DNA from: an uncultured Paracoccaceae bacterium
Lineage (GTDB): Bacteria; Pseudomonadota; Alphaproteobacteria; Rhodobacterales; Rhodobacteraceae
Length of the DNA: 64,000 nt
NCBI GenBank assembly: GCA_947501555.1
Contig: CANMWG010000001.1
Span: forward strand, 2,108,001-2,172,000
Direction: 5' to 3'
The position numbers and the translations under genes are program-made. The notes beneath the pieces were generated by a model. It had not been told where the DNA came from. It was given only the letters and a program-made list of their open reading frames with translations, and made no database searches. This document shows, piece by piece, positions 20,402 through 53,899 of this stretch (positions within the stretch are counted from its first letter, which is position 1; every line of letters begins with the position of its first letter).

Positions 20402-20411
20402 GGACGTTGTG

Positions 20412-39652: not shown

Positions 39653-39678
39653 TCAAATTTCTAGAAATTTGATCACCC
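39647..39678. terminator. Perfect 32-bp palindrome at the end of the M20 gene
   Basis: GGGTGATCAAATTT-CTAG-AAATTTGATCACCC is a perfect inverted repeat (14-bp arms plus a self-complementary CTAG centre) and includes the M20 stop codon. It can fold into a long hairpin between this gene and the next on the same strand. There is only a short CTT after it, so termination is likely but not classical; a protein-binding or cruciform site is the alternative. Confidence 0.55.
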
Positions 39679-39760
39679 CTTGCGAATGTTTGAGTGGACG
39701 CCGAAAATGCAAGACGGAGCGTGTTCAACGCCTGCCTTGCACTTTGAAAAAGGAAAAATA

Positions 39761-40702
39761 ATGCCGAATATGCCCATTTCCGGAAATGACCTCGCCCGGT
39801 TTTCTGGACCACAAAGTTTCATGCGCTTGCCAGAGGTCACGACGCCTGAGGGGTTGGATGTGGGCTTTATTGGCATTCCGATGGATATCGGCACAAGCTG
39901 GCGCTCGGGCACCCGGATGGGGCCGAAGCAATTGCGTGAACAATCGGCGATGATCCGTCCCTATAATATTCAGACTGGGGCGGCACCGTTTGATGCCTTG
40001 CAATGCGCGGATTTGGGTGATGTGCCGATTAACACGTTTTCGCTTAGCGAAAGTATCCGCATCATAACAAAGACTTATGCGAGATTTCTTGAACATGATT
40101 TCATTCCGATGACTTTGGGCGGTGATCATACGTTGACCCTGCCAGTCCTGCGCGCGGTTGCTGCCAAACACGGGCCCCTTGCGCTGGTGCATGTGGATGC
40201 CCATGCCGATGTGAATGATGAAATGTTTGGCGAGCGCGAGACCCACGGCACCGTCTTCCGTCGCGCCTATGAGGAAGGTTTGATCACTGCCAACAAGGTG
40301 TTTCAGATTGGGTTACGCGGAACAGGCTATACGGCGGATGACTTTAACGAGGCCGCTGATTGGGGGTTCAACCAGTATCTGGCACCGGACCTTTGGCACA
40401 AGCCACTTGGTCCCTTAGCAACTGAAATAAAATCAAAAATCGGCGATCAACCCTGTTACATCACCTATGATATCGACAGTCTTGACCCCGCCTATGCCCC
40501 CGGCACCGGCACGCCCGAGATTGGCGGGCTGACCACGCCGCAGGCCATGGAGCTGATCCGTGGTTTGCGCGGACTGAACATCGTCGGCTGTGATTTGGTT
40601 GAAGTCTCACCGCCCTATGATCCCTCTGGCAATACGGCCCTGACAGGTGCAAATCTCATGTTTGAAATGCTGTCGATCTTGCCGGGCGTGCCTTATCGGT
40701 AA
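39761..40702 (+). CDS. Agmatinase/guanidinobutyrase-family ureohydrolase
   Basis: A 313-residue Mn2+ enzyme that cleaves a guanidino compound to urea and an amine. ATG 39761 is chosen because AAGGA lies 7-12 bases upstream; a longer frame begins at 39680. The two-metal motifs are complete: TLGGDHTLTLPVL, LVHVDAHADVND, and DIDSLDPAYAPGTGTPEIGG. Substrate could be agmatine, guanidinobutyrate or guanidinopropionate; sequence alone does not decide. It lies downstream of an M20 hydrolase on the same strand, separated by the long palindrome. Confidence 0.9.
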   Translation: MPNMPISGNDLARFSGPQSFMRLPEVTTPEGLDVGFIGIPMDIGTSWRSGTRMGPKQLREQSAMIRPYNIQTGAAPFDALQCADLGDVPINTFSLSESIRIITKTYARFLEHDFIPMTLGGDHTLTLPVLRAVAAKHGPLALVHVDAHADVNDEMFGERETHGTVFRRAYEEGLITANKVFQIGLRGTGYTADDFNEAADWGFNQYLAPDLWHKPLGPLATEIKSKIGDQPCYITYDIDSLDPAYAPGTGTPEIGGLTTPQAMELIRGLRGLNIVGCDLVEVSPPYDPSGNTALTGANLMFEMLSILPGVPYR

Positions 40703-41093: not shown

Positions 41094-41361
41094 CTAGGGT
41101 CAGGACCCATTAATCTTGCACCGTCAGCGGCGATTTCACGAAACATCAGTGGTTTGCGCCGAGCGGCCATAGTTGTTCTACGGCCAAGCGGCACACGCCG
41201 CTGAGATGATGTGAAATCTTCGCCCTTCGGGCTTACCGGATTTCCCCTCTGATCTGCGGCACATCTGCTTGAAATATAACCACTATTCCTGCGCAGATGC
41301 TTCTTGTCAGAGAAAAAATCTGGCAAACTGACGGTGTAAGATTAATGGGTCCTGACCCTAG
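41094..41361. mobile_element. MITE-like element with 34-bp terminal inverted repeats
   Basis: The first 34 bases (41094-41127, CTAGGGTCAGGACCCATTAA...) match the reverse complement of the last 34 (41328-41361) at 33 of 34 positions. The 268-base element has no long convincing gene, so it is best read as a miniature inverted-repeat transposable element that needs a transposase elsewhere. Both ends begin with CTAG, which could be a target duplication, as for IS5-group elements (inference). A 13-base piece of the same end occurs at 50109-50121. Confidence 0.8.
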
Positions 41362-41572: not shown

Positions 41573-41710
41573 GCAGCCCGCTGCAAAAGACCGCGACTGG
41601 AGATACGACAGTTGTAAGACCCAACTTTACCAGCAAGCGTCTATGGCAAGATCGTTTGTTATTGGTTACCGTCGGACAGATGGATCGGAGCAAGAAGCAA
41701 TGTTGTGTAC

Positions 41711-41986
41711 ATGGATATACTAAGGCGATCTGATCCAGACCAATCAGCGTTGACCTTTTTGTTGGTCGGAGATGTTGATCAAAGTGGCTTTGTTCCGTGG
41801 ATGGAAAGACATGCCGTCAAGCTTGGGGTTGGGTTTGCGGTATTGCAGCGCTCAACAAACAAGATGAAACTGCATGCCGTTGGTGCACCTGAGATGACCC
41901 ATGCCTTTGCGCTTGCCTGCAGCCTGGGGCCAAGCAGTGTTCATATCGATCACCTGCACATCCTTGAGGCCGCGGAAAATTTCTAA
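41711..41986 (+). CDS. Acylphosphatase-like protein lacking the catalytic arginine
   Basis: A 91-residue protein from ATG 41711 (GTG 41705 is an alternative). The core FLLVGDVDQSGFVPWMERHA lines up with the acylphosphatase motif (normally GxVQGVGFRxFVxRxA), and a helix/strand order continues to the end (AFALACSLGPSSVHIDHLHI). The catalytic Arg after GF is Val here, and the expected WVxN segment reads FAVLQRS, so hydrolase activity is unlikely. It may be a ligand-binding relative. It precedes the Rieske operon by 131 bases and could share its promoter region. Confidence 0.5.
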   Translation: MDILRRSDPDQSALTFLLVGDVDQSGFVPWMERHAVKLGVGFAVLQRSTNKMKLHAVGAPEMTHAFALACSLGPSSVHIDHLHILEAAENF

Positions 41987-42117: not shown

Positions 42118-42717
42118 ATGGACTGGGTTGCTGTCGGCTTGTGTGAGGATGTGCCTGCGCGCACGGTTGTGCCTCGGCGTGTTCAGAACACGGATCTTGC
42201 AATCTGGTGCAGTACGGCAGGTGTCTTTCACGCTTGGGGTGATCGTTGTCCGCACCGAGGGATGCGCCTGTCACATGGGTTTGTGCGTGGTGAAACCTTG
42301 TCATGCATTTATCATGGGTGGACGTATGACGGCGATGGGGCCTGCGTTTCGATCCCGGCCCATCCCGATCTGACCCCACCCAAAAGCATATGTGCGGCGC
42401 AATATGCGTGTCGCGTTCAAGACGGGACGATCTGGGTTGCGTTGCAGCCCACCCAAGCTGCCGTGCCCGAACTTGGGGCCCGCCGCGCGATACGGTCGCT
42501 GGCTGTGCAGCTGTCCGCCGAAACACTGGCGACCCGGCTGAAACAACCATTTGGGCCTGTCATCACGCTTGGTGGGGCACATGACATCGCACTTGCGGTG
42601 CAGCCCAGCACCGATACCGATTGTCTGCTTCACGCCTTCGCGGCCCCCGACCAAGATCGCAAAGCAGTGTCATTGGCTCTTGAGCATTTGCGCGACGAGC
42701 TGGAGGCTGCGGCATGA
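42118..42717 (+). CDS. Stand-alone Rieske [2Fe-2S] protein
   Basis: A 199-residue soluble protein. Residues ~1-115 are an oxygenase-type Rieske domain with CPH at 44-46 and CIYHGW at 63-68, giving the C-x-H...C-x2-H set that binds the [2Fe-2S] cluster. The last ~85 residues (from about GARRAIRSLAV) are a separate small domain that I do not recognise. There is no catalytic iron domain. The next gene, overlapping by four bases, supplies exactly that missing part. The inferred role is passing electrons to the catalytic subunit. First gene of an eight-gene operon; GAGGG lies six bases before the ATG. Confidence 0.85.
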   Translation: MDWVAVGLCEDVPARTVVPRRVQNTDLAIWCSTAGVFHAWGDRCPHRGMRLSHGFVRGETLSCIYHGWTYDGDGACVSIPAHPDLTPPKSICAAQYACRVQDGTIWVALQPTQAAVPELGARRAIRSLAVQLSAETLATRLKQPFGPVITLGGAHDIALAVQPSTDTDCLLHAFAAPDQDRKAVSLALEHLRDELEAAA

Positions 42718-43550
42718 GCCGATCCATCAATGATTATTGGTATCCGGTTGGGCTTTTGTCCGGCATCGACGCACCGCACGCCACCTTGTTGTTGGGCGCA
42801 GACATCACTGTAGGCCGCACGCATTCTGCCTATTGGGTCACGGATGCGGCGGGCAAAGCGTTGCCGACCATTAAGCGGTTCGGCCACCTGTGGACATGCC
42901 CCGGCACGCCAATGGACGATCTGTTTACGATCCCAGAGGCGGATACAGCGGGGCGACAATTGGTCGATGTGGGCTCGGTCCGCGTGAAGTGCTCGCCTTT
43001 ACGGGCGGTTGAGAATTTTCTCGACATTGCACATTTTCCTTTCGTCCATACCGATATCTTGGGGGCTGAGCCACACACGGAGGTGGCGCGATACAATGTC
43101 GATATCCGCGAAGACGCCAACGAGGTTTGGGCAACCAAGGTGAAGTTTTTCCAGCCACAGGCGGCGAAATCGGCGGAAGGTGGGATCACAACGGAATACA
43201 TGTACCGTGTGGCCTCTCCTACCTGCGCTGTGCTTTACAAAACGTGCCCGCCCCGCCCCGGTGAATGGGATGTCATCACCCTGTTTGTGCAGCCTTTGAA
43301 CGAGGAATGGTGCGAGGTTTGGCCATGGATGGCCCTCTATGATGACGATTCAACAATGGCGGAGATGGTCAGCTTTCAGCAACTGATTTTCATGCAGGAT
43401 CGCTCAATTCTCGAAAACCAAATACCGACCAAATTGCCATTAGACCCAGGCATGGAGGTCCCGACGCAAGCTGATTTAACGTCCATTGCCTATCGCAGAT
43501 GGCTCAAGAAAATCGGTTACACCTATGGCGCACAGTTGGTCGCGGCATGA
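42714..43550 (+). CDS. Rieske-type oxygenase catalytic subunit without a Rieske domain
   Basis: A 278-residue protein with the mononuclear-iron domain of ring-hydroxylating/demethylating oxygenases. ENFLDIAHFPFVH near residue 101 gives the D-x2-H-x4-H set (bridging Asp and two His ligands), and QDRSILENQ near residue 225 offers the third Asp ligand. No C-x-H/C-x2-H Rieske site exists in it, while typical family members carry one in the first 120 residues. The N-terminal ~60 residues (NDYWYPVGLLSGI) instead resemble a remnant of that fold. With the Rieske protein upstream it forms a split oxygenase, as NdmC does with NdmD. Probable substrate: a purine derivative (context). Confidence 0.83.
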   Translation: MSRSINDYWYPVGLLSGIDAPHATLLLGADITVGRTHSAYWVTDAAGKALPTIKRFGHLWTCPGTPMDDLFTIPEADTAGRQLVDVGSVRVKCSPLRAVENFLDIAHFPFVHTDILGAEPHTEVARYNVDIREDANEVWATKVKFFQPQAAKSAEGGITTEYMYRVASPTCAVLYKTCPPRPGEWDVITLFVQPLNEEWCEVWPWMALYDDDSTMAEMVSFQQLIFMQDRSILENQIPTKLPLDPGMEVPTQADLTSIAYRRWLKKIGYTYGAQLVAA

Positions 43551-44158
43551 TCCTTTATGACTATGTTCTAAGCGCGAGTTGCTACAAAGTTCGGCTCATG
43601 GCTGCTTTGCTGGGTCAATCTTTGACGCTGCACACAGTCAATTTTCATCCAGCGCGTGAACATAAATCGGCGGACATGCTGGCGCTGAACCCAAAGGGCA
43701 CTCTGCCGGTGCTGCTAGACGGGGAAACCGTTCTAACGGACAGCGCTGATATCCTCCGGTATCTGACAAGGGATGCCCCCGAGTGGCGTGGCGATGATGA
43801 TCCTTGGCTCGCTCTGGCCGCAGATTTGAATGAGAGCCTTGGCATGGCCCGTCTCCATGACATTCTGCAATATGACGTCGATATCGATGCCGCCCGTGCC
43901 GCCGGCGTCAAACAATTGCGCAAGCTCGAGGCACATATGACTGCACAACGATTTGACGGCCATTTGTTCCTGACCGGTGCTGTGCCGGCCCTTGCGGATA
44001 TTGCCTGTTTTCCGAACGTTTCCCTGGCGCCTGATGGCGGGGTTAGCCTTGATACATACCCATCACTCCGGCTGTGGATGCGGGCGATCCGCTCTTTGCC
44101 CGGCTTCATTGAAATGCCGGGCATCCACCGCCTGCACGAGCTTGAGTTTCCCGAATGA
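43547..44158 (+). CDS. Glutathione S-transferase-like protein
   Basis: A 203-residue GST fold. ATG 43547 (MILYDYVLSASCYKVRLMAA) overlaps the oxygenase stop and puts the thioredoxin-like domain at the N-terminus; the longer frame from 43499 is inside the upstream gene. The SxxCYKVR segment is the zeta/maleylacetoacetate-isomerase style active-site region, NPKGTLPVLLDGETVLTDSA is the glutathione-binding strand (cis-Pro, Glu/Asp-Ser), and the alpha-helical C-domain follows. In the caffeine system a GST-like protein, NdmE, bridges the oxygenase parts; a similar scaffold role is proposed here. Confidence 0.85.
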   Translation: MILYDYVLSASCYKVRLMAALLGQSLTLHTVNFHPAREHKSADMLALNPKGTLPVLLDGETVLTDSADILRYLTRDAPEWRGDDDPWLALAADLNESLGMARLHDILQYDVDIDAARAAGVKQLRKLEAHMTAQRFDGHLFLTGAVPALADIACFPNVSLAPDGGVSLDTYPSLRLWMRAIRSLPGFIEMPGIHRLHELEFPE

Positions 44159-45543
44159 CCCCTGTTCTGTTTGAAAACTGCGCAGCCGTTGTTAGGTCTG
44201 CCCATGATCCGGTTCTTTGGGGTCACGACATCCTATGTGAAAAGGGCGCAATCACGGCCATAGGGAAAGACCTGCGCCGGACCGCCCCTGACGGTATCGA
44301 GATCGTGGATGGTGACGGATTGTTTGTCTATCCCGGTTTGGTGAATACGCATCACCACTTTTTCCAATGCTTCGTGCGCAACCGTGCCGAATTGGATTGG
44401 ACGCGCTATTCTGTGATTGAATGGCTTGACCGGATTTACCCGATTTTTTCGCGTCTGACCGAAGACTGCTTTTACCACAGTTCAGTTGTAGCCATGGCAG
44501 AGCTGATCAAGCACGGCTGTACGACGGCATTTGATCACCAATATTGTTTCCCGCGCCATGCAGGATCGCGCATCATCGACCGTCAGTTTGAAGCGGCAGC
44601 GTTGATGGGGATGCGGTTTCATGCCGGGCGGGGTGGCAACACGCTGCCAAAATCCGAAGGCAGCACGATCCCCGATGAGATGCTGGAAACCACCGACGGG
44701 TTCATCGCCGATTGTGAGCGCGTTATCGACACATATCATGATGCAGGCCCCCTTTCGATGCGGCAGGTCAGCGTCGCCCCATGCCAGCCAGTCAATTGCT
44801 ATCGCGAAACCTTTGAGCAATCCGTAGCGCTTGCCCGTGATAAAGGGGTGATCCTGCACAGTCATGTTGGCGAAGGCGAAAGCCCGGTGATCGAACAGGT
44901 CCACGGCATGCGCACCGTGGACTATTGCGAAAGCCTGGGTTTCGCGGGACCCGACACGTTCTATGCCCACGGTTGGGAACTGACCCGCGATGAATTGCGC
45001 AAGCTCGCGGCCTCTGGCACTGGCGTGTCCCATTGTTCCGAGCCCGTTTATCTTGTCGGGGCCGAAGTGACGGACATTCCGGCGATGGATGCCTTAGGCG
45101 TCCGGGTTGGTCTTGGGTGTGATGGGGCCGCGTCGAACGATAACTCAAACCTCCTACACTGCATCCATTCGTCATATATGTTGCAGTGCCTTGTCGCGGG
45201 CTCCCGCGCGGATCAGGTGCCAAAGCCGGCCACTTTCTTAAGCTACGCAACTGAAGGCGGCGCGTCGCTTTTGGGCCGCAATGACATCGGGGCATTGCGC
45301 CCCGGCATGGCGGCGGATCTTTTTGCAATTGATACCCGACGTCTGGATTATGTCGGCACGCGCCATGACCCGATCAGCTTGCTGGCCAAGGTCGGCATTG
45401 GATCAACGGTCGACCTAACCATGATCAATGGGCGCATTGTGTGGCGCAACGGCACCTTTCCACACTTAGATGAGGCCGCACTTTTCACCGCTGCCGAACA
45501 AGCACTTCACACAATATTACCGCATCAAACAGAGGAACTATAA
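44155..45543 (+). CDS. 8-Oxoguanine deaminase-like amidohydrolase
   Basis: A 462-residue metal-dependent deaminase of the TRZ/ATZ-guanine deaminase group. Metal and catalytic motifs: VNTHHHFFQCFVRN near residue 63 (HxH), ILHSHVGEGESP (His and Glu), FYAHGWELTRD (His), and RVGLGCDGAASNDNSN (Asp). This pattern and length match 8-oxoguanine deaminases, which turn 8-oxoguanine into urate; hydroxytriazine hydrolases are close relatives. Overlapping starts join it to the GST gene, and the importer genes follow directly. It gives the operon its purine link. Confidence 0.83.
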   Translation: MTPVLFENCAAVVRSAHDPVLWGHDILCEKGAITAIGKDLRRTAPDGIEIVDGDGLFVYPGLVNTHHHFFQCFVRNRAELDWTRYSVIEWLDRIYPIFSRLTEDCFYHSSVVAMAELIKHGCTTAFDHQYCFPRHAGSRIIDRQFEAAALMGMRFHAGRGGNTLPKSEGSTIPDEMLETTDGFIADCERVIDTYHDAGPLSMRQVSVAPCQPVNCYRETFEQSVALARDKGVILHSHVGEGESPVIEQVHGMRTVDYCESLGFAGPDTFYAHGWELTRDELRKLAASGTGVSHCSEPVYLVGAEVTDIPAMDALGVRVGLGCDGAASNDNSNLLHCIHSSYMLQCLVAGSRADQVPKPATFLSYATEGGASLLGRNDIGALRPGMAADLFAIDTRRLDYVGTRHDPISLLAKVGIGSTVDLTMINGRIVWRNGTFPHLDEAALFTAAEQALHTILPHQTEEL

Positions 45544-46638
45544 ATGCCAGATACCATAAAACGTCGCTCGTTTCTGAAAGGGTCGTTGGCGGCGACCACC
45601 GCGATCGCACTGCCGATGCGCGCATTGGCACAAGATGTGTTGAAGATGGGCGTTGTTCTGCCCTCACCAGAGGCCGACGTGGGATGGTCGCACACATTGA
45701 TGGAAGGCGTGCGGACCGTTCAAGAGGCTTACGGCGATACTATCGAAGTCACCGTTCTTGAAAACATCGCAGAAGGCCCGGACGCAGACCGGATCGCCAA
45801 CGGCTTGGTTGCCGAAGGCAACACCATGCTTTTACTTGGATCATTTGGGTATCAAAACGGCGGCATTCAAATCGCCCAACGTCGTCGCGATGTGTCAATC
45901 ATTCATGCGTCTGGCTATCTGACAGAGCCGAACTTTGCGCCCTTCACCGCCAAATACTGGCAGGGCACTTACCTGATGGGTATGGCGGCGGCATCCTTGA
46001 CCAAATCCAAGAAAATTGGCTGCGTTGGTGCATTTGCGATCCCGGAACTGATCACATCGATCAATGCCTTTATGTTGGGTGCGCAATCCATTGATCCTGA
46101 GATCGAGGTAAGCGTCGTTTGGGTCAACAGCTGGTTTGACCCCGCATCAGAACAAGAGGCGGCCAAGGCGCTGATTTCGCAGGATGTCGATGTGATCTTC
46201 TCAAATGCCCAAGACACGCCATCTGTGATCGCCGTAGCCGAAGAGGCTGGCGTCTATGCGTTCAACCTGAACTCGTCGATGAAAGAGTATGCGCCCTCAA
46301 AATATCTTGGCGTCGTCGGCACCGATTGGGGTCCGCATTTCAAGCGCCTGGTCGACGCCCATGTTGCAGGCGAATTCCCTGGCGGCAACTTCTGGCTCGG
46401 GATGGAAGATGATATCGTCTACACCGCCGATTGGAACCCGGATATCCCAGCCGATGTTGTAAGCCAGATCGAGGCAACGCAGGCCGCGATCCTGGACGGC
46501 TCTTTCACTGTGTTCAAAGGTCCGCTGCTCGATCAGGCCGGAACTGAACGTGTGGCTGACGGGGTGGCCATGACGGATGGTGAAATCCTTGGCATGGATT
46601 GGCACGTCGCTGGTGTCACATCGCCCCTGCCTTCATGA
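45544..46638 (+). CDS. BMP-family ABC transporter substrate-binding protein
   Basis: A 364-residue periplasmic binding protein of the Bmp/PnrA-like family, which binds nucleosides or nucleobases. The N-terminus is a clear Tat signal (IKRRSFLKGSLAATTAIALP, cleaved after ALA). Mature motifs include VLKMGVVLPSPEADVGWSHT, MLLLGSFGYQNGG and KIGCVGAFAIPELITSIN. It starts the base after the deaminase stop. A Tat route suggests folding before export. Purine or purine-like ligand is inferred from family plus neighbours. Confidence 0.88.
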   Translation: MPDTIKRRSFLKGSLAATTAIALPMRALAQDVLKMGVVLPSPEADVGWSHTLMEGVRTVQEAYGDTIEVTVLENIAEGPDADRIANGLVAEGNTMLLLGSFGYQNGGIQIAQRRRDVSIIHASGYLTEPNFAPFTAKYWQGTYLMGMAAASLTKSKKIGCVGAFAIPELITSINAFMLGAQSIDPEIEVSVVWVNSWFDPASEQEAAKALISQDVDVIFSNAQDTPSVIAVAEEAGVYAFNLNSSMKEYAPSKYLGVVGTDWGPHFKRLVDAHVAGEFPGGNFWLGMEDDIVYTADWNPDIPADVVSQIEATQAAILDGSFTVFKGPLLDQAGTERVADGVAMTDGEILGMDWHVAGVTSPLPS

Positions 46639-48134
46639 CCCAACCGGCACTATTGACCTTGGCGGGCGTGTCAAAACGCTACGGCAAGGTCCAAGCGAAT
46701 AAAGCGATTGATCTAGAGGTCCGTTCTGGATCAATCCACGCCGTCTTGGGCGAAAACGGCGCGGGCAAGTCCACACTGATGAAGCTGATCTATGGTGTGG
46801 AACGTCCCGACGAAGGCGTCATCATGTGGAACGGCGCGCCGGTGGCTTTCAACCGCCCGTCGGATGCACAGGCTTTGGGGATCGGGATGGTGTTTCAGCA
46901 CTTTTCCTTGTTCGAGACCCTGAACGTTGTGCAAAACGTTTCGCTGATGATCCCCGGCCGTCCGCAGGAATTGGCGCAAAAGATCAAAGATTTAGGTGAA
47001 AAATTCGGCCTGTCTGTTGATCCGGGTGCGATGGTGCACACACTGTCTGTTGGTGAGCGTCAGCGCGTCGAGATTATCCGTTGTTTGCTGCTTGACCCTA
47101 AGCTGTTGATCTTGGACGAGCCCACATCCGTTCTGCCGCCTCAAAGCGTACAGTTGCTGTTTGAAACATTGCGTAAACTGCAGGCCGCAGGCACCGCGAT
47201 CTTGTTTATTTCCCACAAGCTAGAAGAGATACGCGCGCTGTGTGATGAGGCAACCGTGCTGCGTGGCGGCGCGGTGACGGGGCGTGTTGATCCAAGAGCC
47301 AATGATGCGCGCGCATTGGCGCAGATGATGATTGGTCGCGACATGCCGCAGGTTGATGCCGCGCGCGCGAACCAACCGGGCGACCTGCGTTTGCAGCTCA
47401 AAGACCTCAGCCACCCGCGCGTGTCACGGTTTGGCACGACATTGACGGACATCAACCTAGATCTTCGCGCGGGCCAAATCGTTGGCATCGCGGGTATTTC
47501 TGGCAATGGGCAGCAGGAATTGGCGGCTCTGATCTCGGGCGAAACCCGCGCGCAGGCTAAGGACATGGTGCAGATCATGGGGCGGGGTGTCGGTCTGCTT
47601 GACGCACAACAACGTCGCCAACTTGGGTTTTCCTTTGTGCCAGAAGAACGTCTGGGCCGTGGGGCCATCCCGGAAATGTCCTTGGCAGACAACTCACTAT
47701 TAACCGCACACCGGCAAGATATGCTCAAAGGCGGTTTTATCAAACGCCAGGTTGAGCGGGCATTTACCCGCCGCTGCATCGAAGAATTTGACGTTCGCAC
47801 GCCCGGTCCTGATGCAGAGGCAGGTGCCATGTCCGGGGGCAACTTGCAAAAATTCATCCTTGGCCGTGAGATCATGTTGCAGCCTGATGTCATGCTGGTC
47901 TCGCAACCCACTTGGGGCGTCGATATCGGGGCCGCAACTGCGATCCGCCGCCGCCTGATCGATATGCGGGCCGAGGGTGCTGCAATCCTTGTGATCTCGG
48001 AAGAATTGGAAGAGCTGTTTGAGATTTGTGACAGCCTGCATGTGCTGCACGAAGGACATCTTTCAAAACCCTTGGTGGTATCAGAGACCACAGCCGAAGA
48101 GGTCGGCGCCTATATGATCGGGGCAACCGTATGA
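46635..48134 (+). CDS. BMP-type ABC transporter ATP-binding protein, double domain
   Basis: A 499-residue tandem ATPase of the NupA/YufO type. ATG 46635 (MTQPALLTLAGVSKRYGK) overlaps the binding-protein stop; the 46599 frame start is within the upstream gene. Domain 1: [31 protein letters not shown] and LLILDEPTSVL. Domain 2: GISGNGQQELAALISG (non-canonical P-loop usual for this family), SGGNLQKFILGREI and a degenerate Walker B MLVSQPTWGVD. The weak second site is normal for the class. Confidence 0.9.
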   Translation: MTQPALLTLAGVSKRYGKVQANKAIDLEVRSGSIHAVLGENGAGKSTLMKLIYGVERPDEGVIMWNGAPVAFNRPSDAQALGIGMVFQHFSLFETLNVVQNVSLMIPGRPQELAQKIKDLGEKFGLSVDPGAMVHTLSVGERQRVEIIRCLLLDPKLLILDEPTSVLPPQSVQLLFETLRKLQAAGTAILFISHKLEEIRALCDEATVLRGGAVTGRVDPRANDARALAQMMIGRDMPQVDAARANQPGDLRLQLKDLSHPRVSRFGTTLTDINLDLRAGQIVGIAGISGNGQQELAALISGETRAQAKDMVQIMGRGVGLLDAQQRRQLGFSFVPEERLGRGAIPEMSLADNSLLTAHRQDMLKGGFIKRQVERAFTRRCIEEFDVRTPGPDAEAGAMSGGNLQKFILGREIMLQPDVMLVSQPTWGVDIGAATAIRRRLIDMRAEGAAILVISEELEELFEICDSLHVLHEGHLSKPLVVSETTAEEVGAYMIGATV

Positions 48135-49201
48135 AGCTGCGCCTGATCCGCCGTGATGCCGCGTCTCGGCTAGCGATGTTTGGTGCGCCAGTTTTAGCGC
48201 TGGTGTTGACCTGTCTGACCAGTCTTGTTCTATTTGCCGCCCTCGGGCTCCCGGCTGGCAAAGCGCTGCATGCGCTTTTGCTCAAACCCTTTCTAAGCTG
48301 GTACAGCTTTTCCGAGGTTTTGCTGAAAATGGCGCCGCTGCTGCTCATCGCGCAAGGGCTGGCCATCGGGTTTCGCGCCAATGTGTTCAACATCGGGGCC
48401 GAAGGGCAGTTCATCATCGGTGCGCTCTGCGCGTCGGCCTTTCCGGTGTATTTCCCCGATGGAAACTTCCCCTTGATGTTGCTTGCCATGATCCTCGCCG
48501 GGGGGCTGGGTGGAATGGCGTTTGCGTCCATCGCCGCAGGGCTGCGCACAAGGTTCGGCGCGTCCGAAATCCTTGTGACTTTGATGCTGAGCCTGATTGC
48601 CGTGCAAATCCTGAATTACCTGCTTCTTGGCCCGTGGAAAGACCCGCGTGGCTTCAACTTTCCACAAACAGTCAGGTTCCCGGAAAACGCGCTGCTGCCT
48701 TTGCTGTTCGAAAACGTCCGGCCCAATATTTCACTAATATTCGCACTGGGCGGAAGCCTGTTTGCCTATCTGATGATGGAAAAGCACTTTCTTGGCTACC
48801 AACTGCGCACGGCCGGGTTGGCGCCAAAGGCGGCACTTTATGCTGGTTTCAGCACGCCGCGCATGATCTGGCTGACCCTCGCATTGGGCGGGCTTGCCGC
48901 AGGGATCGCCGGCGCCAGCGAGGTCGCGGGTCCCTTGGGGCAGCTGCAACGCTCTGTCTCATCAGGATACGGCTATGCGGCGATTATCGTGGCTTATGTC
49001 GGCGGGTTGCGCCCTGTTGGTATAGTGGCGTCTAGCTTCCTGATCTCGGTCCTCTATATCGGCGGTGACAGCGCGACCGTGTCAGCCGGACTGCCCGTTG
49101 CGGCGGTCGAAGTGTTCCAGGGCATGCTCTTGGCATTTTATCTGCTGACCTTCACGCTGATCCGGTTTCGCATACACTTTGAGCGGGGGGCGGCAGCATG
49201 A
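48131..49201 (+). CDS. BMP-type ABC transporter permease 1
   Basis: A 356-residue inner-membrane permease with about nine hydrophobic segments. FRANVFNIGAEGQFIIGAL near residue 78 and YGYAAIIVAYVGGLRPVGI near residue 277 are hallmarks of NupB/YufP-type permeases for nucleosides. The ATG overlaps the ATPase stop by four bases and its own stop overlaps the next permease, so all importer parts are made together. Confidence 0.9.
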   Translation: MKLRLIRRDAASRLAMFGAPVLALVLTCLTSLVLFAALGLPAGKALHALLLKPFLSWYSFSEVLLKMAPLLLIAQGLAIGFRANVFNIGAEGQFIIGALCASAFPVYFPDGNFPLMLLAMILAGGLGGMAFASIAAGLRTRFGASEILVTLMLSLIAVQILNYLLLGPWKDPRGFNFPQTVRFPENALLPLLFENVRPNISLIFALGGSLFAYLMMEKHFLGYQLRTAGLAPKAALYAGFSTPRMIWLTLALGGLAAGIAGASEVAGPLGQLQRSVSSGYGYAAIIVAYVGGLRPVGIVASSFLISVLYIGGDSATVSAGLPVAAVEVFQGMLLAFYLLTFTLIRFRIHFERGAAA

Positions 49202-50073
49202 GCGCGTTAGAATTCCTGCTGGCGGGCACGCTGGCTGCCGCCTTGCCCCTCTTGCTCGCCGCCTTGGGTGAGATGGTCGTCGAAAAGACGGGGCTTTTGA
49301 ACCTCGGGTTGGAAGGGATGATGGCCATTGGGGCAGCGATTGCGTTCATCTGTGTGTACCATACAGATGCGCATAGTCTCGGCTTTCTTGCGGCCGCTTT
49401 GGTAAGCGCTGTGCTTGCGCTGATATTCGCGGCACTTGTCATCGTGGTGCAGGCCAACCAAGTGGCTGCAGGGCTTGCTGTTGGCGTGTTAGGCTTAGGC
49501 CTATCCGCGCTTTTTGGGAAATCATACGAAAGCCAGACGATATCGGGACTTGAGGAGATCGGGTTGCCCGTCTTGTCGCAAATCCCAGTGGTTGGCCCAA
49601 CGCTTCTGACGCAAGATATTGTCGTTTGGCTGACACTGCTGGGGACCGTCGGTCTGTGGTATATGTTGAACAAGACCAAGTTGGGCCTCATCATCACAGC
49701 TGTTGGCGAAAGCGCCGAAGCCGCGCGCGCCATTGGCTACCCCGTTGGCTTGATCCGGACGATTGCTGTTGCATTCGGGGGGGCGATGTGTGGCCTTGCC
49801 GGGGCTTACGCGTCAACCGTTTACACACCACTTTGGGCCGATGGGATGATCGCAGGCCGCGGCTGGATAGCACTTGCGTTGGTTGTGTTTGGTACATGGC
49901 GAACGGGGCGCGTCGTCTTCGGTGCCATCCTTTTTGGCGTCTTGTCATTGGGTGAGTTGACCGCACAAGCCATTGGTGTAGCGATCCCATCCCAGGTCCT
50001 CGCAAGCCTTCCGTACATCGTGACAATTTTGATGCTTGTCGCAATCTCGCGTCATCAAACCCGCGTTGGCTAA
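49198..50073 (+). CDS. BMP-type ABC transporter permease 2
   Basis: A 291-residue permease with about eight hydrophobic segments. MVVEKTGLLNLGLEGMMAIG near residue 22 and GMIAGRGWIALALVVFGTW near residue 215 are typical of NupC/YufQ partners. It pairs with the preceding permease as the membrane channel of the importer. It is the last gene of the Rieske-deaminase-importer operon; the following minus-strand operon converges on it. Confidence 0.9.
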   Translation: MSALEFLLAGTLAAALPLLLAALGEMVVEKTGLLNLGLEGMMAIGAAIAFICVYHTDAHSLGFLAAALVSAVLALIFAALVIVVQANQVAAGLAVGVLGLGLSALFGKSYESQTISGLEEIGLPVLSQIPVVGPTLLTQDIVVWLTLLGTVGLWYMLNKTKLGLIITAVGESAEAARAIGYPVGLIRTIAVAFGGAMCGLAGAYASTVYTPLWADGMIAGRGWIALALVVFGTWRTGRVVFGAILFGVLSLGELTAQAIGVAIPSQVLASLPYIVTILMLVAISRHQTRVG

Positions 50074-50171: not shown

Positions 50172-51260
50172 CTAAGAAATCATCTGCATATCCCGCGACA
50201 AGCCAGACAAAACCTCTGGTCCGTCGGCCCGCATGATCACGATGTCTTCCAAGCGCAATCCAAACCGCCCCGGCAGGTAGATGCCCGGCTCGATGGAAAA
50301 TACCATGCCTTCATCCAGAACCGATTGCGATGAGGCCGAGATATAGGGCGGTTCATGCACTTCGATGCCCATGCCGTGCCCGAGCCGGTGGACGAAGTAT
50401 TCGCCATAGCCCGCATCGGTGATCACCTTGCGCGCGGCATCATCAAGCACATGTGCTTTCACGCCGGGGCGCGCGACAGCGATAGCGGCTTGGACCGCCG
50501 CCTCCACAATCGCGTGTACCTCTGCATAACCTTCGGGGGCCTCACCCATCACCGCCATGCGGGTGATGTCAGAACTGAACCCGTCGCGGCCAGCGCCGAT
50601 GTCCATGACCACGGCTTGGCCCTTTTCCAACACCGTTTCGCCAGTTTGGTGGTGCGGCAGCGCACCGTTTTCGCCTGCACCGATGATGGTAAAGATCGGC
50701 TTTGCGCCAAGGCCAACAAAGGCTTCGCGCACAACTTCTGCCACTTGGGTTTCTGTCATGCCCGGCCGCATCGCAGCCCAAGCCGCTTGCATCGCCTTAT
50801 CCGCAATCAGGGCGTTGGCCTTTAGCGCTGCATATTCTTCAGGCCCTTTGCGAGCGCGCAACGCGCTGACGGTTGTTTCGCAGAACTGACGTTTGGCGTT
50901 CATCAACCTGTCTTGGATCAAGGCGGCGTGATCGGCACGCATGGTTTCGTCCAACACGATAGAGCGCGCGGCACTTGCGCCAAAGGTGTCTAGCATCTGT
51001 TCCAGTGCACCTGTCGGGCCGTCCGCATCCAGCCATTCAAAGAAAGGCAGATCAGTTTGCCGACGCGCGCTTTCGGTTTCCAAAGCAGGCATCAACAGGC
51101 CAGCGTGGTCCGCTGTAATACAGAAAATCAGCGGACGTTCATCCGCATGCGGGTGCATGCCCGTTAGCCATTCCAAATGTGCGCCGGGGCCAAGGGCCAC
51201 CAGATCAACGCCTTCATCGATCATTTTCGCGCGGAGTTTAGCTAGTCTATCCATGGTCAT
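50172..51260 (-). CDS. M24 family metallopeptidase (Xaa-Pro aminopeptidase/creatinase-like)
   Basis: A 362-residue two-domain pita-bread enzyme. The five metal ligands are all present: VVMDIGAG (Asp), FSSDITR (Asp), VHRLGHGMGIEVHE (His), VFSIEPGIYL (Glu) and LRLEDIVIM (Glu). Proline dipeptidases, aminopeptidase P and creatinase share this fold; no residue seen here decides between them. ATG 51260 or ATG 51254 are both possible, just overlapping the dehydrogenase stop. It is the last gene of the leftward hydantoinase operon, so a creatinase-like or dipeptide role fits. Confidence 0.88.
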   Translation of the reverse strand: MTMDRLAKLRAKMIDEGVDLVALGPGAHLEWLTGMHPHADERPLIFCITADHAGLLMPALETESARRQTDLPFFEWLDADGPTGALEQMLDTFGASAARSIVLDETMRADHAALIQDRLMNAKRQFCETTVSALRARKGPEEYAALKANALIADKAMQAAWAAMRPGMTETQVAEVVREAFVGLGAKPIFTIIGAGENGALPHHQTGETVLEKGQAVVMDIGAGRDGFSSDITRMAVMGEAPEGYAEVHAIVEAAVQAAIAVARPGVKAHVLDDAARKVITDAGYGEYFVHRLGHGMGIEVHEPPYISASSQSVLDEGMVFSIEPGIYLPGRFGLRLEDIVIMRADGPEVLSGLSRDMQMIS

Positions 51261-52255
51261 GCTCCTGTTTCGATGACGACTTTGCCGTGCTTCGCGCGCG
51301 GCTGTTCCATATAGCGCCAGCCCCCGATGTAGTCTTCCATCGGATAGACCTTGTCGATCAGCGGCTTAAGAGACCCATCAGATAACCCCGCATAGACATA
51401 ATCCGTGCCGCGTTTCTTGGCTGCATCGTCCTCGACGTAATTAAATAGGGAATACATGTGCAGCCAAGCGTTTGACTGCCACATATCTACAAAGGGAATA
51501 GCGGGAAATTTCTCGTTCAGTGTGCCGTAAAGCATGATCTTGGCGTTTTTGGCCAAGCAGGGCCCGTAGCGCGTCGGGAAATCCCCTCCGACAGGATCAA
51601 ACACGCCGTGTACGCCAACACCTGTCGTTACGTCTTTGATAAAGGCGGCAAGATCGCTTCCGTCATCCACAAAGACATGATCTGCGCCACTGTCCTTGAG
51701 GTAGCCAACAGAGCTGGCAGACCGCGTGGTGCCGATCATCGTCGCACCCGCTGCGCGACCGATCTGCAAGGCGGCATTGCCTGCGGTACCTGTAGCAGCA
51801 GTTGCAAGAATATTCACGCCGGGTCCGGCCTTAGACATCTCGATCACCGGATAATAGGCGGTCATGAACTGCATCCAAACCGAACAGGCCTCAACTGCGT
51901 TCATATTCTCGGGCGCGGGGGTCAGGTATTTGGCGGGGGTGGTCAGCGTGTCGGCGCTGGCACCGTTGTCATAGTAGAAATAGGGCAATGTGCAGTAGCG
52001 TTTGCCGATCTCGATGCCTGTAACGCCTTCTCCGATGGCCTTCACAATGCCTGTCGCTTCACAACCGATACGGGCGGGCAACCTCTCAAAGCTGAAGGAA
52101 TATTGGTCCTTCATCAGGTTCATATCCCCCCAGTTCAGGGCAAAAGCTTCGATCCGCAAGCGGACTTCGCCTGCTTTGGGCGGAACGTGCACGCAGTCTT
52201 GTAAGCGCAGGGCCTCATATCCGTTATAGGCGTCGATGACCCATTCTCTTGGCAT
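51257..52255 (-). CDS. Zinc-type MDR alcohol dehydrogenase/quinone reductase-like protein
   Basis: A 332-residue medium-chain oxidoreductase. The N-terminal GroES-like part has ALNWGDMNLMKDQY and PARIGCEATGIVKAIGEGV; the Rossmann part has ILATAATGTAGNAALQIGRA. The catalytic zinc Cys/His set of true alcohol dehydrogenases and the structural zinc cysteines are missing, so quinone-reductase-like chemistry is likely. It lies three bases after the hydantoinase B stop and is co-transcribed. Its role in the pathway is unknown. Confidence 0.8.
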   Translation of the reverse strand: MPREWVIDAYNGYEALRLQDCVHVPPKAGEVRLRIEAFALNWGDMNLMKDQYSFSFERLPARIGCEATGIVKAIGEGVTGIEIGKRYCTLPYFYYDNGASADTLTTPAKYLTPAPENMNAVEACSVWMQFMTAYYPVIEMSKAGPGVNILATAATGTAGNAALQIGRAAGATMIGTTRSASSVGYLKDSGADHVFVDDGSDLAAFIKDVTTGVGVHGVFDPVGGDFPTRYGPCLAKNAKIMLYGTLNEKFPAIPFVDMWQSNAWLHMYSLFNYVEDDAAKKRGTDYVYAGLSDGSLKPLIDKVYPMEDYIGGWRYMEQPRAKHGKVVIETGA

Positions 52256-52258
52256 TAT

Positions 52259-53896
52259 TTAGGCTCCATAGATTTCGGATGCACGGTCTGCCGTGATCAG
52301 ACCCGCCTTGATATCAGCATCCACCGCGTCACGGTCACGCTTTTTGGGATCGCCATAGCCCGCCCCCGAGGACGTGACGACGCGGATCACGTCATCTGTT
52401 GTCACATCTAGGCCCGAAACAAAGCTGTAGCGTTCGGTGCCGTCAGGCTTGATCACTTCAACATAGTTGCCGGACCCCTCATGGCCGCCTTCCATCGCCC
52501 AGGGCTTTACTTTGGATCGCGTGTAGCCAGCGGTCATGAACCCGTTGCTTGTGCGAATGCGGTATTCCAAAACCAAGCCGCGGCCACCGTTGAATTCGCC
52601 TTCGCCGCCCGGCACCGTGTTCAGCGCCATGCGGTCCACATAGAGCCCATTTCGTGCTTCAGAGATTTCGGCGGGTGTGTTGTAGGTCTCGCCATGGAAA
52701 TTGCAGAAGGTGCAGGAAATACCGTCATGATCATGCCCGGCACCCCAACCGCCGATTTGCGGTTCAATGATGGTATATTGCCGCCCTGTATCGGGGTGGA
52801 TGCCGCCGATGAACGTCCCGCAGATCGAACTGAAATGTCCCGCTGGCAGCAGGTCGGGAATATGTGGGGCCAAGCAACGCCAGATCAGATCGTTGCTGCG
52901 AATTTCGGTTTCGTAATAGAACCCAATCGCTGCGGGTTCCTTGGCATGAAAGATCGACCCTTCGCGTGTCAAAACTGTCAACGGTCGGAAGCTGCCGTCA
53001 TTGGCAGGCGTGTCCGGCCCGGTCAGCGCCTTAAAGATCATCTGCGCGCAAATCAGGGTGCCATCGCGGGTTGCGTTTGCGGGGCCTGATGTCTGATCGG
53101 GATTGTCACGAAAATCGACGACAAACTCATCGTCGCTGATCGTAACCTTCACGTTGAAAATCTGACCATCATCCTGCGGTTCATTCAATTCAAACGTGCC
53201 TTTGGGAAGTTTGGCCAGCTCGGCGCAGGCCGCCTTTTCACCAAAGTCCATAAAGCTGTCCATCGCCGCCAGAAACGTCTTGGATGTGTATTTCTCTGCA
53301 AGCATACCAAGGCGGCGTTCGCCCACACGTACAGCGGCAATCGCAGCCCAGACATCGCCCTTTAGGAAATCGGGCATCCGCGAGTTGCAGGTTAGAATAT
53401 CCATGACCGCGTCATCGGTGACACCTTCATTGACGATCTTAACGCAAGGTAGGCGCAGCCCCTCCTGAAACACCTCAGTCGCGTCGCCGGACAGTGAACC
53501 GGGAGCCATACCGCCAATGTCAGAATTATGCGCGATGTTCGCGGTCCAAGCGATCAATTGGCCCTCGACGAAGACGGGCATCGCCAGCACCAGATCGTTC
53601 AGATGGGTCACGCCACCATGCCAAGGATCATTGGTGATAAACACATCGCCGGGGCGGATATCGTTGTGCTTGGACAAGATAAACTGCACCGACTTATCAA
53701 GCACGCCAATAAACGCAGGGATGCCCGCGCCAGAAGACGCAAGCCGCCCATCGGCATCCGTAATGCCCGTGCCCATATCTAGCACTTCATAGATGATCGA
53801 GGACATCGCTGTTTTACGCATCGCAGCAAACATCTCATCCGCGGTGGCCTGCAAGGCGTTCTGGATGATTTCTAGTGTGATCGGATCTTCGCTCAT
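52259..53896 (-). CDS. hyuB: Hydantoinase/oxoprolinase B subunit
   Basis: A 545-residue HyuB-family subunit, which with HyuA opens hydantoin, N-methylhydantoin or 5-oxoproline rings using ATP. The N-terminus is typical: MFAAMRKTAMSSIIYEVLDM, GDVFITNDPWHGGVTHLNDL, ANIAHNSDIGGMAPGSLSGD; towards the C-terminus PQIGGWGAGHDHDGISCTFC is seen. It follows hyuA by three bases. A second hyuB-like gene (63443 onward) is more than half identical over the part visible, so the locus has two non-identical B subunits. Confidence 0.92.
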   Translation of the reverse strand: MSEDPITLEIIQNALQATADEMFAAMRKTAMSSIIYEVLDMGTGITDADGRLASSGAGIPAFIGVLDKSVQFILSKHNDIRPGDVFITNDPWHGGVTHLNDLVLAMPVFVEGQLIAWTANIAHNSDIGGMAPGSLSGDATEVFQEGLRLPCVKIVNEGVTDDAVMDILTCNSRMPDFLKGDVWAAIAAVRVGERRLGMLAEKYTSKTFLAAMDSFMDFGEKAACAELAKLPKGTFELNEPQDDGQIFNVKVTISDDEFVVDFRDNPDQTSGPANATRDGTLICAQMIFKALTGPDTPANDGSFRPLTVLTREGSIFHAKEPAAIGFYYETEIRSNDLIWRCLAPHIPDLLPAGHFSSICGTFIGGIHPDTGRQYTIIEPQIGGWGAGHDHDGISCTFCNFHGETYNTPAEISEARNGLYVDRMALNTVPGGEGEFNGGRGLVLEYRIRTSNGFMTAGYTRSKVKPWAMEGGHEGSGNYVEVIKPDGTERYSFVSGLDVTTDDVIRVVTSSGAGYGDPKKRDRDAVDADIKAGLITADRASEIYGA

Positions 53897-53899
53897 GGG

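What the first reader, a model, noticed from the sequence alone, without database searches (positions are those of the whole stretch)
42118..50073. Split Rieske oxygenase with GST-like partner in a purine-uptake operon
The Rieske [2Fe-2S] domain (C44/H46...C63/H66) and the mononuclear-iron domain (D-x2-H-x4-H) are on separate genes, followed by a GST-like gene, an 8-oxoguanine-deaminase-like gene and a BMP-type nucleoside importer. All are coupled by overlaps of four bases or abut. Established knowledge: in caffeine N7-demethylation NdmC lacks a Rieske domain, NdmD carries the extra one, and GST-like NdmE is needed for the complex. Here the Rieske domain is on a small free protein with no reductase, and the set is joined to a purine deaminase and importer. 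I infer an N-demethylase or hydroxylase for a modified purine, built on a new arrangement. This is the best candidate for an undescribed system in the window.
Basis: partly seen in the sequence, partly recalled or inferred. Interest (0 to 1): 0.85.

Follow-up and report, generated by a model that had tools for sequence, protein, structure and literature searches.

The report
Two-piece Rieske enzyme for guanine derivatives
A nine-gene operon shared by many marine and root-nodule bacteria appears to import a guanine-like compound and oxidise it with an oxygenase whose two metal centres sit on separate proteins, probably a reductase-free cousin of the bacterial caffeine demethylase NdmCDE.

Summary
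At 42118-50073 a free Rieske protein, a Rieske-less catalytic subunit, a GST-like protein, a deaminase-like amidohydrolase and a BMP-type importer follow each other, overlapping by 4 bases or abutting.

The set is an old module. Of the best 80 GTDB loci, 80 hold Rieske, catalytic and GST genes, 78 the acylphosphatase-like gene, 73 the amidohydrolase; only one has a convincing reductase nearby. The catalytic subunit groups with NdmC-type proteins. In NdmCDE the Rieske domain is fused to the reductase; here it is free.

The catalytic protein is an oxygenase subunit with the cluster-binding part cut out. The Rieske protein carries what looks like a shrunken catalytic domain (fold evidence; sequence evidence weak). 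This suggests a duplicated oxygenase whose copies each lost the other's centre.

The importer has an AtzT-like guanine pocket, and some related clusters hold guanine and 8-oxoguanine deaminases. Best guess: N-demethylation of a methylated guanine or its deaminated product, with an unlinked reductase. Substrate and complex are inferred. New variant of a known kind.

The parts
41705..41986 (+). acylphosphatase-like protein (93 aa, GTG start) without the catalytic Arg and Asn; probable member of the module
   Evidence: Pfam PF00708 22.9 bits (cut-off 22.5); homologue (31-64 bits) in 78 of 80 GTDB loci; Arg 0 of 31 and Asn 1 of 31 in operon copies against 8 of 8 in canonical ones
42118..42717 (+). 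free Rieske [2Fe-2S] protein (199 aa): residues 1 to about 115 Rieske domain, 120-199 small beta-alpha-beta3-alpha domain
   Evidence: Pfam Rieske 6.7e-21; ligands C44/H46/C63/H66 invariant in 56 rows; model pLDDT 96.4; Foldseek TMq 0.80 to Rieske oxygenase subunits
42714..43550 (+). catalytic subunit (278 aa): mononuclear-iron domain, cluster-binding part of the Rieske domain missing
   Evidence: Pfam VanA_C 9.9e-19; hhalign end to end with intact alpha subunits, E 3.2e-47; D104/H107/H112/D229 invariant in 31 rows
43547..44158 (+). GST-like protein (203 aa), NdmE-like
   Evidence: Pfam GST_N_2 1.3e-14; 41-42% identity to GSTs of ndmCDE-type clusters L040 and L041; present in 80 of 80 GTDB loci, overlapping or within 30 bases of the catalytic gene
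44155..45543 (+). amidohydrolase of the 8-oxoguanine deaminase / AtzB branch (462 aa)
   Evidence: NF006055 368.8 bits, under cut-off 532; best solved structures 7ww2 (named 8-oxoguanine deaminase / hydroxydechloroatrazine ethylaminohydrolase) and 3hpa
45544..46638 (+). BMP-family periplasmic substrate-binding protein (364 aa) with Tat signal and AtzT-like guanine pocket
   Evidence: Pfam Bmp 9.8e-39, TAT_signal 5.6e-5; 3s99 1.4e-77 and AtzT 6pi5 1.4e-71; pocket residues
46635..48134 (+). importer ATPase with two ABC stretches (499 aa)
   Evidence: Pfam ABC_tran, 2 stretches, 6.3e-46
48131..49201 (+). importer permease 1 (356 aa)
   Evidence: Pfam BPD_transp_2 3.1e-34
49198..50073 (+). importer permease 2 (291 aa)
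   Evidence: Pfam BPD_transp_2 4.3e-30

Best explanation
A catabolic module for a guanine-type purine base. The Tat-exported BMP protein captures the base with an AtzT-like pocket and the ABC importer takes it up. The amidohydrolase removes an amino group. A two-piece Rieske oxygenase, most likely held together by the GST-like protein as in NdmCDE, oxidises the ring's N-methyl group (N-demethylation, N7 the first choice), giving formaldehyde and guanine or xanthine for the cell's own guanine deaminase and xanthine dehydrogenase. Electrons pass from an unlinked PDR/VanB-type reductase to the [2Fe-2S] cluster of the free Rieske protein and across the interface to the iron of the catalytic protein. 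Shown here: gene order and its conservation, the two metal sites on two proteins, end-to-end homology of the catalytic protein with intact oxygenase subunits, no NdmD-like reductase in the window and hardly any beside the 80 related operons, candidate reductases and downstream enzymes elsewhere in the genome, conservation of the SBP pocket. Inferred: that the proteins form one complex, the electron route, the order of steps, that the reaction is demethylation, and the substrate.
For: Catalytic subunit lies in the Rieske-less NdmC-type group (SH-aLRT 96; 100/98), whose characterised member works on N7 of 7-methylxanthine with a GST partner (PMC4408171 passages). Rieske, catalytic and GST genes together in 80 of 80 loci. 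AtzT binds guanine at 0.11 uM (PMC6834077 passages); window SBP keeps S, F, E, W, N of its pocket; S/F/E/W are identical in 73 of 73 SBPs, N in 69 of 73. Of 10 amidohydrolases scanned from five related loci, two pass the curated cut-off for guanine deaminase (L045 421, L057 380; cut-off 375.4) and two that for 8-oxoguanine deaminase (L045 604.7, L060 580.6; cut-off 532). Three of six fetched plasmid loci with an intact relative of the oxygenase have a purine mark (HpxD or HpxO annotation). Own genome has guanine deaminase, xanthine dehydrogenase and glutathione-dependent formaldehyde dehydrogenase over cut-off and three NdmD-reductase-like proteins, all outside the window. A kombucha Komagataeibacter plasmid holds a free-Rieske set next to a stand-alone PDR/VanB reductase.
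Against: No activity, expression or binding data. The amidohydrolase is under every curated cut-off shown, so its substrate need not be the reference one. Two SBP pocket residues differ from AtzT in all 73 sequences (Y45 to W, N220 to D); the aspartate may not suit a 7-methylated base. The closest solved structures of both oxygenase parts are the saxitoxin-pathway enzymes SxtT/GxtA, not NdmA or NdmB. Three of the six plasmid loci with intact relatives have no purine mark. Relatives of caffeine-cluster frmA/fghA are absent from the window and, apart from two weak frmA-like hits (24-25% identity), from the 80 loci, so no formaldehyde gene sits beside the operon as in caffeine clusters. The complex was not modelled.
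Confidence: 0.45

Rival explanations
1. A molybdenum-free C8 hydroxylase: the oxygenase turns guanine (or xanthine) into the 8-oxo form, and the amidohydrolase deaminates 8-oxoguanine to urate, in the manner of the xanthine hydroxylase HpxDE.
For: The amidohydrolase is nearest to 8-oxoguanine deaminase; the AtzT-like pocket fits unmethylated guanine; HpxD-type oxygenases are among the intact relatives; N7 and C8 are neighbouring ring atoms, so the iron need not move far (known purine chemistry).
Against: The catalytic subunit groups with NdmC-type proteins, not with the HpxD row. The genome already has guanine deaminase and xanthine dehydrogenase over cut-off, so a bypass is not needed here. 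HpxD is an intact alpha subunit with an adjacent PDR/VanB reductase.
Confidence: 0.22
2. A plain methylxanthine (caffeine, theobromine, 7-methylxanthine) N7-demethylase, same substrate as NdmCDE, with only the reductase unlinked.
For: NdmC-type phylogeny and GST partner; the Komagataeibacter free-Rieske sets come from tea fermentation.
Against: The usual partner is an amidohydrolase near enzymes of amino-purines and triazines, and the SBP pocket is that of a guanine binder; methylxanthines have no exocyclic amino group. Caffeine-type clusters carry further oxygenase subunits, frmA/fghA and NCS2 symporters; the window has no other Rieske protein and no relative of those frmA, fghA and NCS2 proteins.
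Confidence: 0.12
3. An oxygenase for a non-purine N-heterocycle or guanidine compound (s-triazine, pterin, saxitoxin-like or hydantoin-type).
For: Best solved relatives of both oxygenase parts are SxtT/GxtA; AtzB and triazine hydrolases are close to the amidohydrolase and AtzT to the SBP; hydantoinase and M24 genes lie next to the operon in the window and in L045 and L046.
Against: AtzT itself prefers guanine to 2-hydroxyatrazine (0.11 against 2.2 uM); record titles show legume symbionts and marine bacteria, which argues for a common natural compound; hydantoinase A was found near 4 and B near 3 of 108 loci, though most stretches end about where hyuA would lie.
Confidence: 0.15

Closest known systems
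NdmCDE, 7-methylxanthine N7-demethylase of Pseudomonas putida CBB5
   Same: Rieske-less catalytic subunit, Rieske domain on another protein, GST-like partner; catalytic subunits in one group; the linker of NdmD-like proteins aligns with the C-terminal part of the free Rieske protein, loosely. NdmC itself was not at hand: clusters on K. pneumoniae, P. putida and P. caffeinilytica plasmids stood in for it.
   Different: NdmD fuses the Rieske domain to a reductase; here no NdmD-like reductase lies in the window, and a pseudo-acylphosphatase is present instead (found in most free-Rieske loci, absent in 8 of 8 fused loci). Frequent link to amidohydrolase and importer.
SxtT / GxtA (SxtDIOX), saxitoxin-pathway Rieske oxygenases
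   Same: Closest solved structures for both parts by sequence and fold
   Different: One chain matches both parts, so both centres are on one protein; alpha3 and biosynthetic (recalled)
HpxDE, molybdenum-free xanthine hydroxylase
   Same: Purine substrate by annotation, distant homology of the catalytic domain (30%)
   Different: Intact alpha subunit and adjacent PDR/VanB reductase
AtzT / 3s99 purine-base binding proteins
   Same: Best solved relatives; five of seven listed pocket residues
   Different: Y45 to W and N220 to D in all 73 SBPs
8-oxoguanine deaminase / AtzB
   Same: Best families and structures
   Different: Under the curated cut-off, 368.8 against 532 bits

Membership tests
NdmCDE | catalytic subunit without a Rieske domain | tested here: met
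NdmCDE | Rieske domain fused to a reductase (NdmD) | tested here: not met
   P0001 is 199 aa, Rieske plus small domain; reductase-like hits near 3 of 80 loci, only L075 convincing
NdmCDE | GST-like NdmE partner gene | tested here: met
   41-42% identity to stand-ins for NdmE; 80 of 80 loci
NdmCDE | common origin of the catalytic subunit with NdmC | tested here: met
   trees, with stand-ins for NdmC; beside, not inside, the fused group (82/87 and 88/75 support, so moderate)
NdmCDE | N7-demethylase activity and tight three-protein complex | not testable with these tools
   needs biochemistry
Rieske non-heme iron oxygenase | Rieske ligands C-x-H...C-x2-H and iron ligands with bridging Asp | tested here: met
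   both present but on two proteins; roles of the residues recalled
8-oxoguanine deaminase (NF006055) | score over the curated cut-off | tested here: not met
   368.8 against 532 bits
acylphosphatase | catalytic Arg and Asn (recalled as catalytic) | tested here: not met
   window has V and Q; operon copies 0 of 31 and 1 of 31; canonical 8 of 8 and 8 of 8
AtzT-type purine-base SBP | guanine-contacting residues Y45, S97, F98, E165, W194, N218, N220 | tested here: inconclusive
   five kept, Y45 to W, N220 to D; ligand not testable
HpxDE | alpha subunit with its own Rieske domain | tested here: not met
   no Rieske domain in the window's catalytic subunit; the HpxD row is an intact subunit

The most novel reading that the evidence does not exclude
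A Rieske oxygenase remade as a complementing pair. Two copies of one ancestral subunit each lost the other's metal centre but kept a shrunken shell of that domain, so that only the mixed assembly works. The Rieske piece is a shared, exchangeable electron relay: in L058 and L060 single Rieske and GST genes sit beside two catalytic subunits, each next to its own deaminase-like gene. A catalytically dead acylphosphatase, seen only where the Rieske protein is not fused to a reductase, serves as the docking adaptor for an outside reductase. The whole serves a modified-guanine (RNA-derived methylguanine) diet, for which my searches found no described bacterial oxygenase.
Probability: 0.3. Interest if true: 0.8.

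Novelty: new variant of a known kind. Interest (0 to 1): 0.62.

Why it matters
In ordinary Rieske oxygenases the cluster and the iron lie on one chain and work across subunits (recalled). NdmCDE was described as very unique in splitting them (PMC4408171 passages). This module shows that the split is widespread, mainly in Alphaproteobacteria, and occurs without a fused reductase, and it offers small separable parts in which electron transfer, the role of the GST and the choice of catalytic subunit can each be tested. It also points to a route by which symbionts and marine bacteria could use modified guanine from RNA turnover, and gives a testable function to operons now annotated only as 'aromatic ring-hydroxylating dioxygenase'.

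Tried and rejected
Chance or local rearrangement: rejected, same order in Rhizobium plasmids and most of 80 loci. Intact Rieske domain hidden in the catalytic subunit: rejected. A reductase in the operon: the three NdmD-reductase-like proteins of the genome all lie outside the window; in the 80 loci three hits, L067 (53 aa, 28 bits) and L135 (179-aa frame on the other strand, 36 bits, beside another Rieske gene) doubtful, L075 (369 aa, 66 bits) plausible.

Sequence proof that the Rieske protein's C-terminal part is a catalytic-domain relic: weak only. Local hhalign gives E 0.002-0.011 and probability 4-14% for three overlapping catalytic profiles against E 0.09 and 0.16 for two unrelated controls, in the expected register; in global mode no profile stands out from the controls (E 0.36-0.54 against 0.44 and 0.77). 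The whole Rieske alignment against intact subunits stops at residue 119; against the catalytic alignment it finds 37 N-terminal columns at 32% probability, E 0.0005.

Hydantoinase, M24, M20 and ureohydrolase neighbours as part of the system: not supported; hyuA near 4, hyuB near 3, M24 near 2, M20 near 6, ureohydrolase near 1 of 108 loci. Most GTDB stretches end about 10 kb from the catalytic gene (64 of 80 hold 9 kb or more downstream), which is where hyuA would lie, so hyuA may be undercounted.

Trees: the first (77 rows) put all 54 free-Rieske rows on one side of a branch (SH-aLRT 91). The second (58 rows: 16 free-Rieske rows and 9 of 15 intact rows left out, 6 rows added) kept the free-Rieske rows in one group of 41 with only 82/87 support, with the long row L165a outside; which form is ancestral is left open. 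Both trees warn of long branches.

Literature: no paper in the held library has Rieske with '8-oxoguanine deaminase' or with '7-methylguanine', or four of acylphosphatase, Rieske, BMP family, amidohydrolase, ring-hydroxylating dioxygenase, 8-oxoguanine. Searches gave caffeine papers or nothing seen on this locus; of 81, 82 and 85 only the listed part (15 of 156, 15 of 113, 10 of 21) was seen. 'Undescribed' is limited to these searches. The canonical acylphosphatases on minus strands were first read on the wrong strand and done again; the alignment is void.


Full report
What is there. Translations and family scans: free Rieske protein of 199 aa (Pfam Rieske 6.7e-21), a 278-aa protein hitting catalytic-domain models but no Rieske model (VanA_C 9.9e-19), a GST-like protein of 203 aa, an amidohydrolase of 462 aa, a Bmp-family binding protein with a Tat signal, an ATPase with two ABC stretches and two permeases. 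A ninth gene, 41705-41986, codes for an acylphosphatase-like protein just over the Pfam cut-off (22.9 against 22.5 bits); it is the only acylphosphatase match in the genome at E up to 1.

Conservation. A search of 295 genomes of the same family with the catalytic subunit found matches in 47, of which 21 (the window's own included) are near full length at E 1.7e-63 or better. Neighbourhoods of the 20 others: a free Rieske gene in 17 (L046-L062), an NdmD-like fusion in 2 (L063, L064), neither beside the gene in 1 (L065); GST in 19. Of the 80, all have Rieske, catalytic and GST genes, 78 the acylphosphatase-like gene (31-64 bits), 73 the amidohydrolase, 73 the binding protein, 72 the ATPase and 72 each permease; 55 show exactly the window's order and no other hit. 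Only 71 of the 80 stretches reach as far as the second permease would lie. Median gaps are -4 (Rieske-catalytic, 80 pairs), -4 (catalytic-GST, 80), 1 (68), 23 (67), 3 (68), -4 (72) and -4 (72) bases on to the second permease, and 151 bases (78 pairs) between the acylphosphatase-like and Rieske genes; starts were chosen by similarity. Plasmids of Rhizobium johnstonii 3841 and Shinella zoogloeoides carry all nine genes as annotated; R. etli CFN 42 has the same order, its first gene annotated as hypothetical but matched by similarity. Record titles include Marivita, Sulfitobacter, Mesorhizobium, Rhizobium, Martelella, Geminicoccaceae and Granulosicoccaceae.

The two oxygenase parts. The alignment of 34 catalytic subunits (A3) runs end to end along 15 intact alpha subunits (A5): 268 columns, E 3.2e-47, with gaps where the [2Fe-2S]-binding part of the Rieske domain would be. 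So the catalytic protein is an ordinary subunit with the cluster-binding part removed. Its iron-site residues D104, H107, H112 and D229 are invariant in 31 rows; that D104 is the bridging aspartate and the other three the iron ligands is recalled knowledge of the family. The Rieske protein keeps the four ligands in 56 of 56 rows. Its model (mean pLDDT 96.4) has after the Rieske domain a beta-alpha-beta3-alpha unit. Foldseek aligns it to oxygenase subunits: GxtA 6wnc_A TMq 0.80 (rmsd 6.2 over 255 columns), NdmA 6ick_A TMq 0.80 (rmsd 3.5 over 259 columns). As the Rieske part is about 115 of 199 residues, it alone could give at most about 0.58; the rest should superpose on the catalytic domain (my arithmetic; the aligned ranges are not printed). 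Sequence support for this is weak, and absent in global mode. The catalytic model is less certain (84.6; blocks of 65 and 50 at residues 101-120, the iron helix) but matches GxtA 6wnd_C at TMq 0.84 over 325 columns. I read the pair as a duplicated subunit with complementary loss; the catalytic half of that claim is firm, the Rieske half moderate.

Kinship with NdmCDE. PMC4408171 (passages read) says NdmC lacks a Rieske cluster, NdmD carries an extra one, NdmE is a GST-like protein required for solubility and activity, and homologous clusters are known in 18 organisms, nearest those of Janthinobacterium, K. pneumoniae and Pseudomonas TJI-51, the others predominantly Sinorhizobium and Mesorhizobium. 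PMC13237722 (passages) says the structure of the complex is unsolved. I used plasmid clusters of P. putida (L040), K. pneumoniae (L041) and Paraburkholderia caffeinilytica (L155) as stand-ins for NdmCDE. Trees: all Rieske-less subunits are apart from intact ones (96; 100/98); the 54 free-Rieske rows form one side of a branch (91); a group of 41 rows at 82/87 holds the 39 free-Rieske rows, one Komagataeibacter row and one row of unknown partner, beside a group of 10 with the 9 fused rows at 88/75. The long row L165a stands outside both. The linker of NdmD-like proteins can be aligned with the C-terminal part of the free Rieske protein.

Electron supply. With the reductase part of an NdmD-like protein as query, 3 of 80 loci have a hit, one convincing: L075, a 369-aa frame about 900 bases upstream of its acylphosphatase-like gene. 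The window's genome has three such proteins, none in the window, the best (37%) about 2.2 kb from the Rieske match of another oxygenase. A Komagataeibacter nataicola plasmid from kombucha has two free-Rieske sets around a separate PDR/VanB reductase that is 40% identical to the NdmD reductase part; set b falls in the free-Rieske group, while the Rieske protein of set a has lost its second cysteine by eye (sequence).

The acylphosphatase-like protein. Against eight canonical sequences from family genomes the Arg is kept in 8 of 8 and 0 of 31 operon copies, the Asn in 8 of 8 and 1 of 31 (that these two residues are catalytic is recalled). A profile finds it in 15 of the 17 family loci with a free Rieske gene; L062 has none, and L046, the nearest relative, shows only what looks like a C-terminal remnant. 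It is found in L038, L039, L045, L165 and L166, in none of 8 loci with a fused NdmD (L040-L043, L063, L064, L155, L168), and not in L044, L065 and L167, which are intact or of unknown partner. It is thus tied to the unfused form but dispensable in at least one strain. A docking adaptor for the outside reductase is a guess.

Substrate. The binding protein's nearest structures are 3s99 and AtzT. AtzT was purified with guanine (Kd 0.11 uM; adenine 2.5, 2-hydroxyatrazine 2.2) and 3s99 has adenine modelled (PMC6834077 passages). The window protein keeps S97, F98, E165, W194 and N218 and changes Y45 to W48 and N220 to D224 (one gap makes the last ambiguous). W48, S100, F101, E168, W197 and D224 are the same in 73 of 73 proteins, the window's included; N221 in 69. 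The pocket is thus guanine-like yet fixed in a different form. The amidohydrolase is nearest 8-oxoguanine deaminase and AtzB. Of 10 amidohydrolases scanned from five related loci, two pass the guanine deaminase cut-off (L045, L057), two the 8-oxoguanine deaminase cut-off (L045, L060), three more come within 17 bits of the former (L056 373.6, L060 361.7, L058 358.8; cut-off 375.4), and three resemble triazine/adenosine-type enzymes below cut-off. L058 and L060 also have molybdenum hydroxylases of the xanthine dehydrogenase type, and in each a single Rieske and a single GST gene lie with two catalytic subunits. Of six plasmid loci with intact relatives, three carry an HpxD or HpxO annotation and three have no purine mark. 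The genome has guanine deaminase, xanthine dehydrogenase and glutathione-dependent formaldehyde dehydrogenase over cut-off. Caffeine-cluster frmA, fghA and NCS2 proteins have no relative in the window; in the 80 loci there are two weak frmA-like hits and one NCS2-like hit, in the 20 family loci none.

Mechanism. I favour N-demethylation of a methylated guanine or of its deaminated product, N7 first because NdmC acts there. The D224 change could speak for a base with N9-H, such as an 8-oxo form, and against 7-methylguanine; this rests on one ambiguous column and on my reading of hydrogen bonds. C8 hydroxylation is the chief rival. The general frame (guanine-type base, two-piece oxygenase with GST, outside reductase) I hold at about 0.75; the full statement with demethylation at 0.45.

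Novelty. NdmCDE and ndmCDE-like clusters in rhizobia are known. The reductase-free form, the pseudo-acylphosphatase and the nine-gene set were not found in print in the searches named under Tried and rejected, which cover only the held library. It fails one defining feature of NdmCDE (the fusion), so I call it a new variant that works like NdmCDE, not a member.

Noticed in passing
window 41094-41127 and 41328-41361: 34-base inverted repeat, 97% complementary, 200 bases between arms, just upstream of the module; looks like a small mobile element remnant.
   Followed up: no
window 50172-55969 (minus strand): M24 peptidase/creatinase-like gene, alcohol dehydrogenase-like gene and hydantoinase B and A genes (named by eye) next to the module; the M24 and hydantoinase genes also lie near related clusters in Rhizobium sp. 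BG6 (L045) and L046. Co-occurrence is rare in the stretches held, so the link is open.
   Followed up: partly
window 38495-40702: M20-type amidohydrolase and an agmatinase-like ureohydrolase upstream (named by eye); M20 relatives near 6 and ureohydrolase relatives near 1 of 108 loci.
   Followed up: partly
L165 5802-6335 (Komagataeibacter nataicola plasmid): Free Rieske protein whose second cluster cysteine is missing (LEGVYHG), beside a highly diverged catalytic subunit that keeps its D-x2-H-x4-H.
   Followed up: no
window 10839-16394 with 16428-21773: Large repeat-rich (RTX-like) protein followed by two ABC exporters and an HlyD-like protein, by eye from the ORF list.
   Followed up: no
L046 7300-8130: The nearest relative of the window's operon (catalytic subunit 91% identical) keeps only what looks like a C-terminal remnant of the acylphosphatase-like gene.
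   Followed up: partly
L044 (Leptolyngbya boryana plasmid): An intact Rieske oxygenase gene directly after a BMP importer operon, 34% identical to the window's catalytic subunit; a one-piece counterpart in a cyanobacterium.
   Followed up: no
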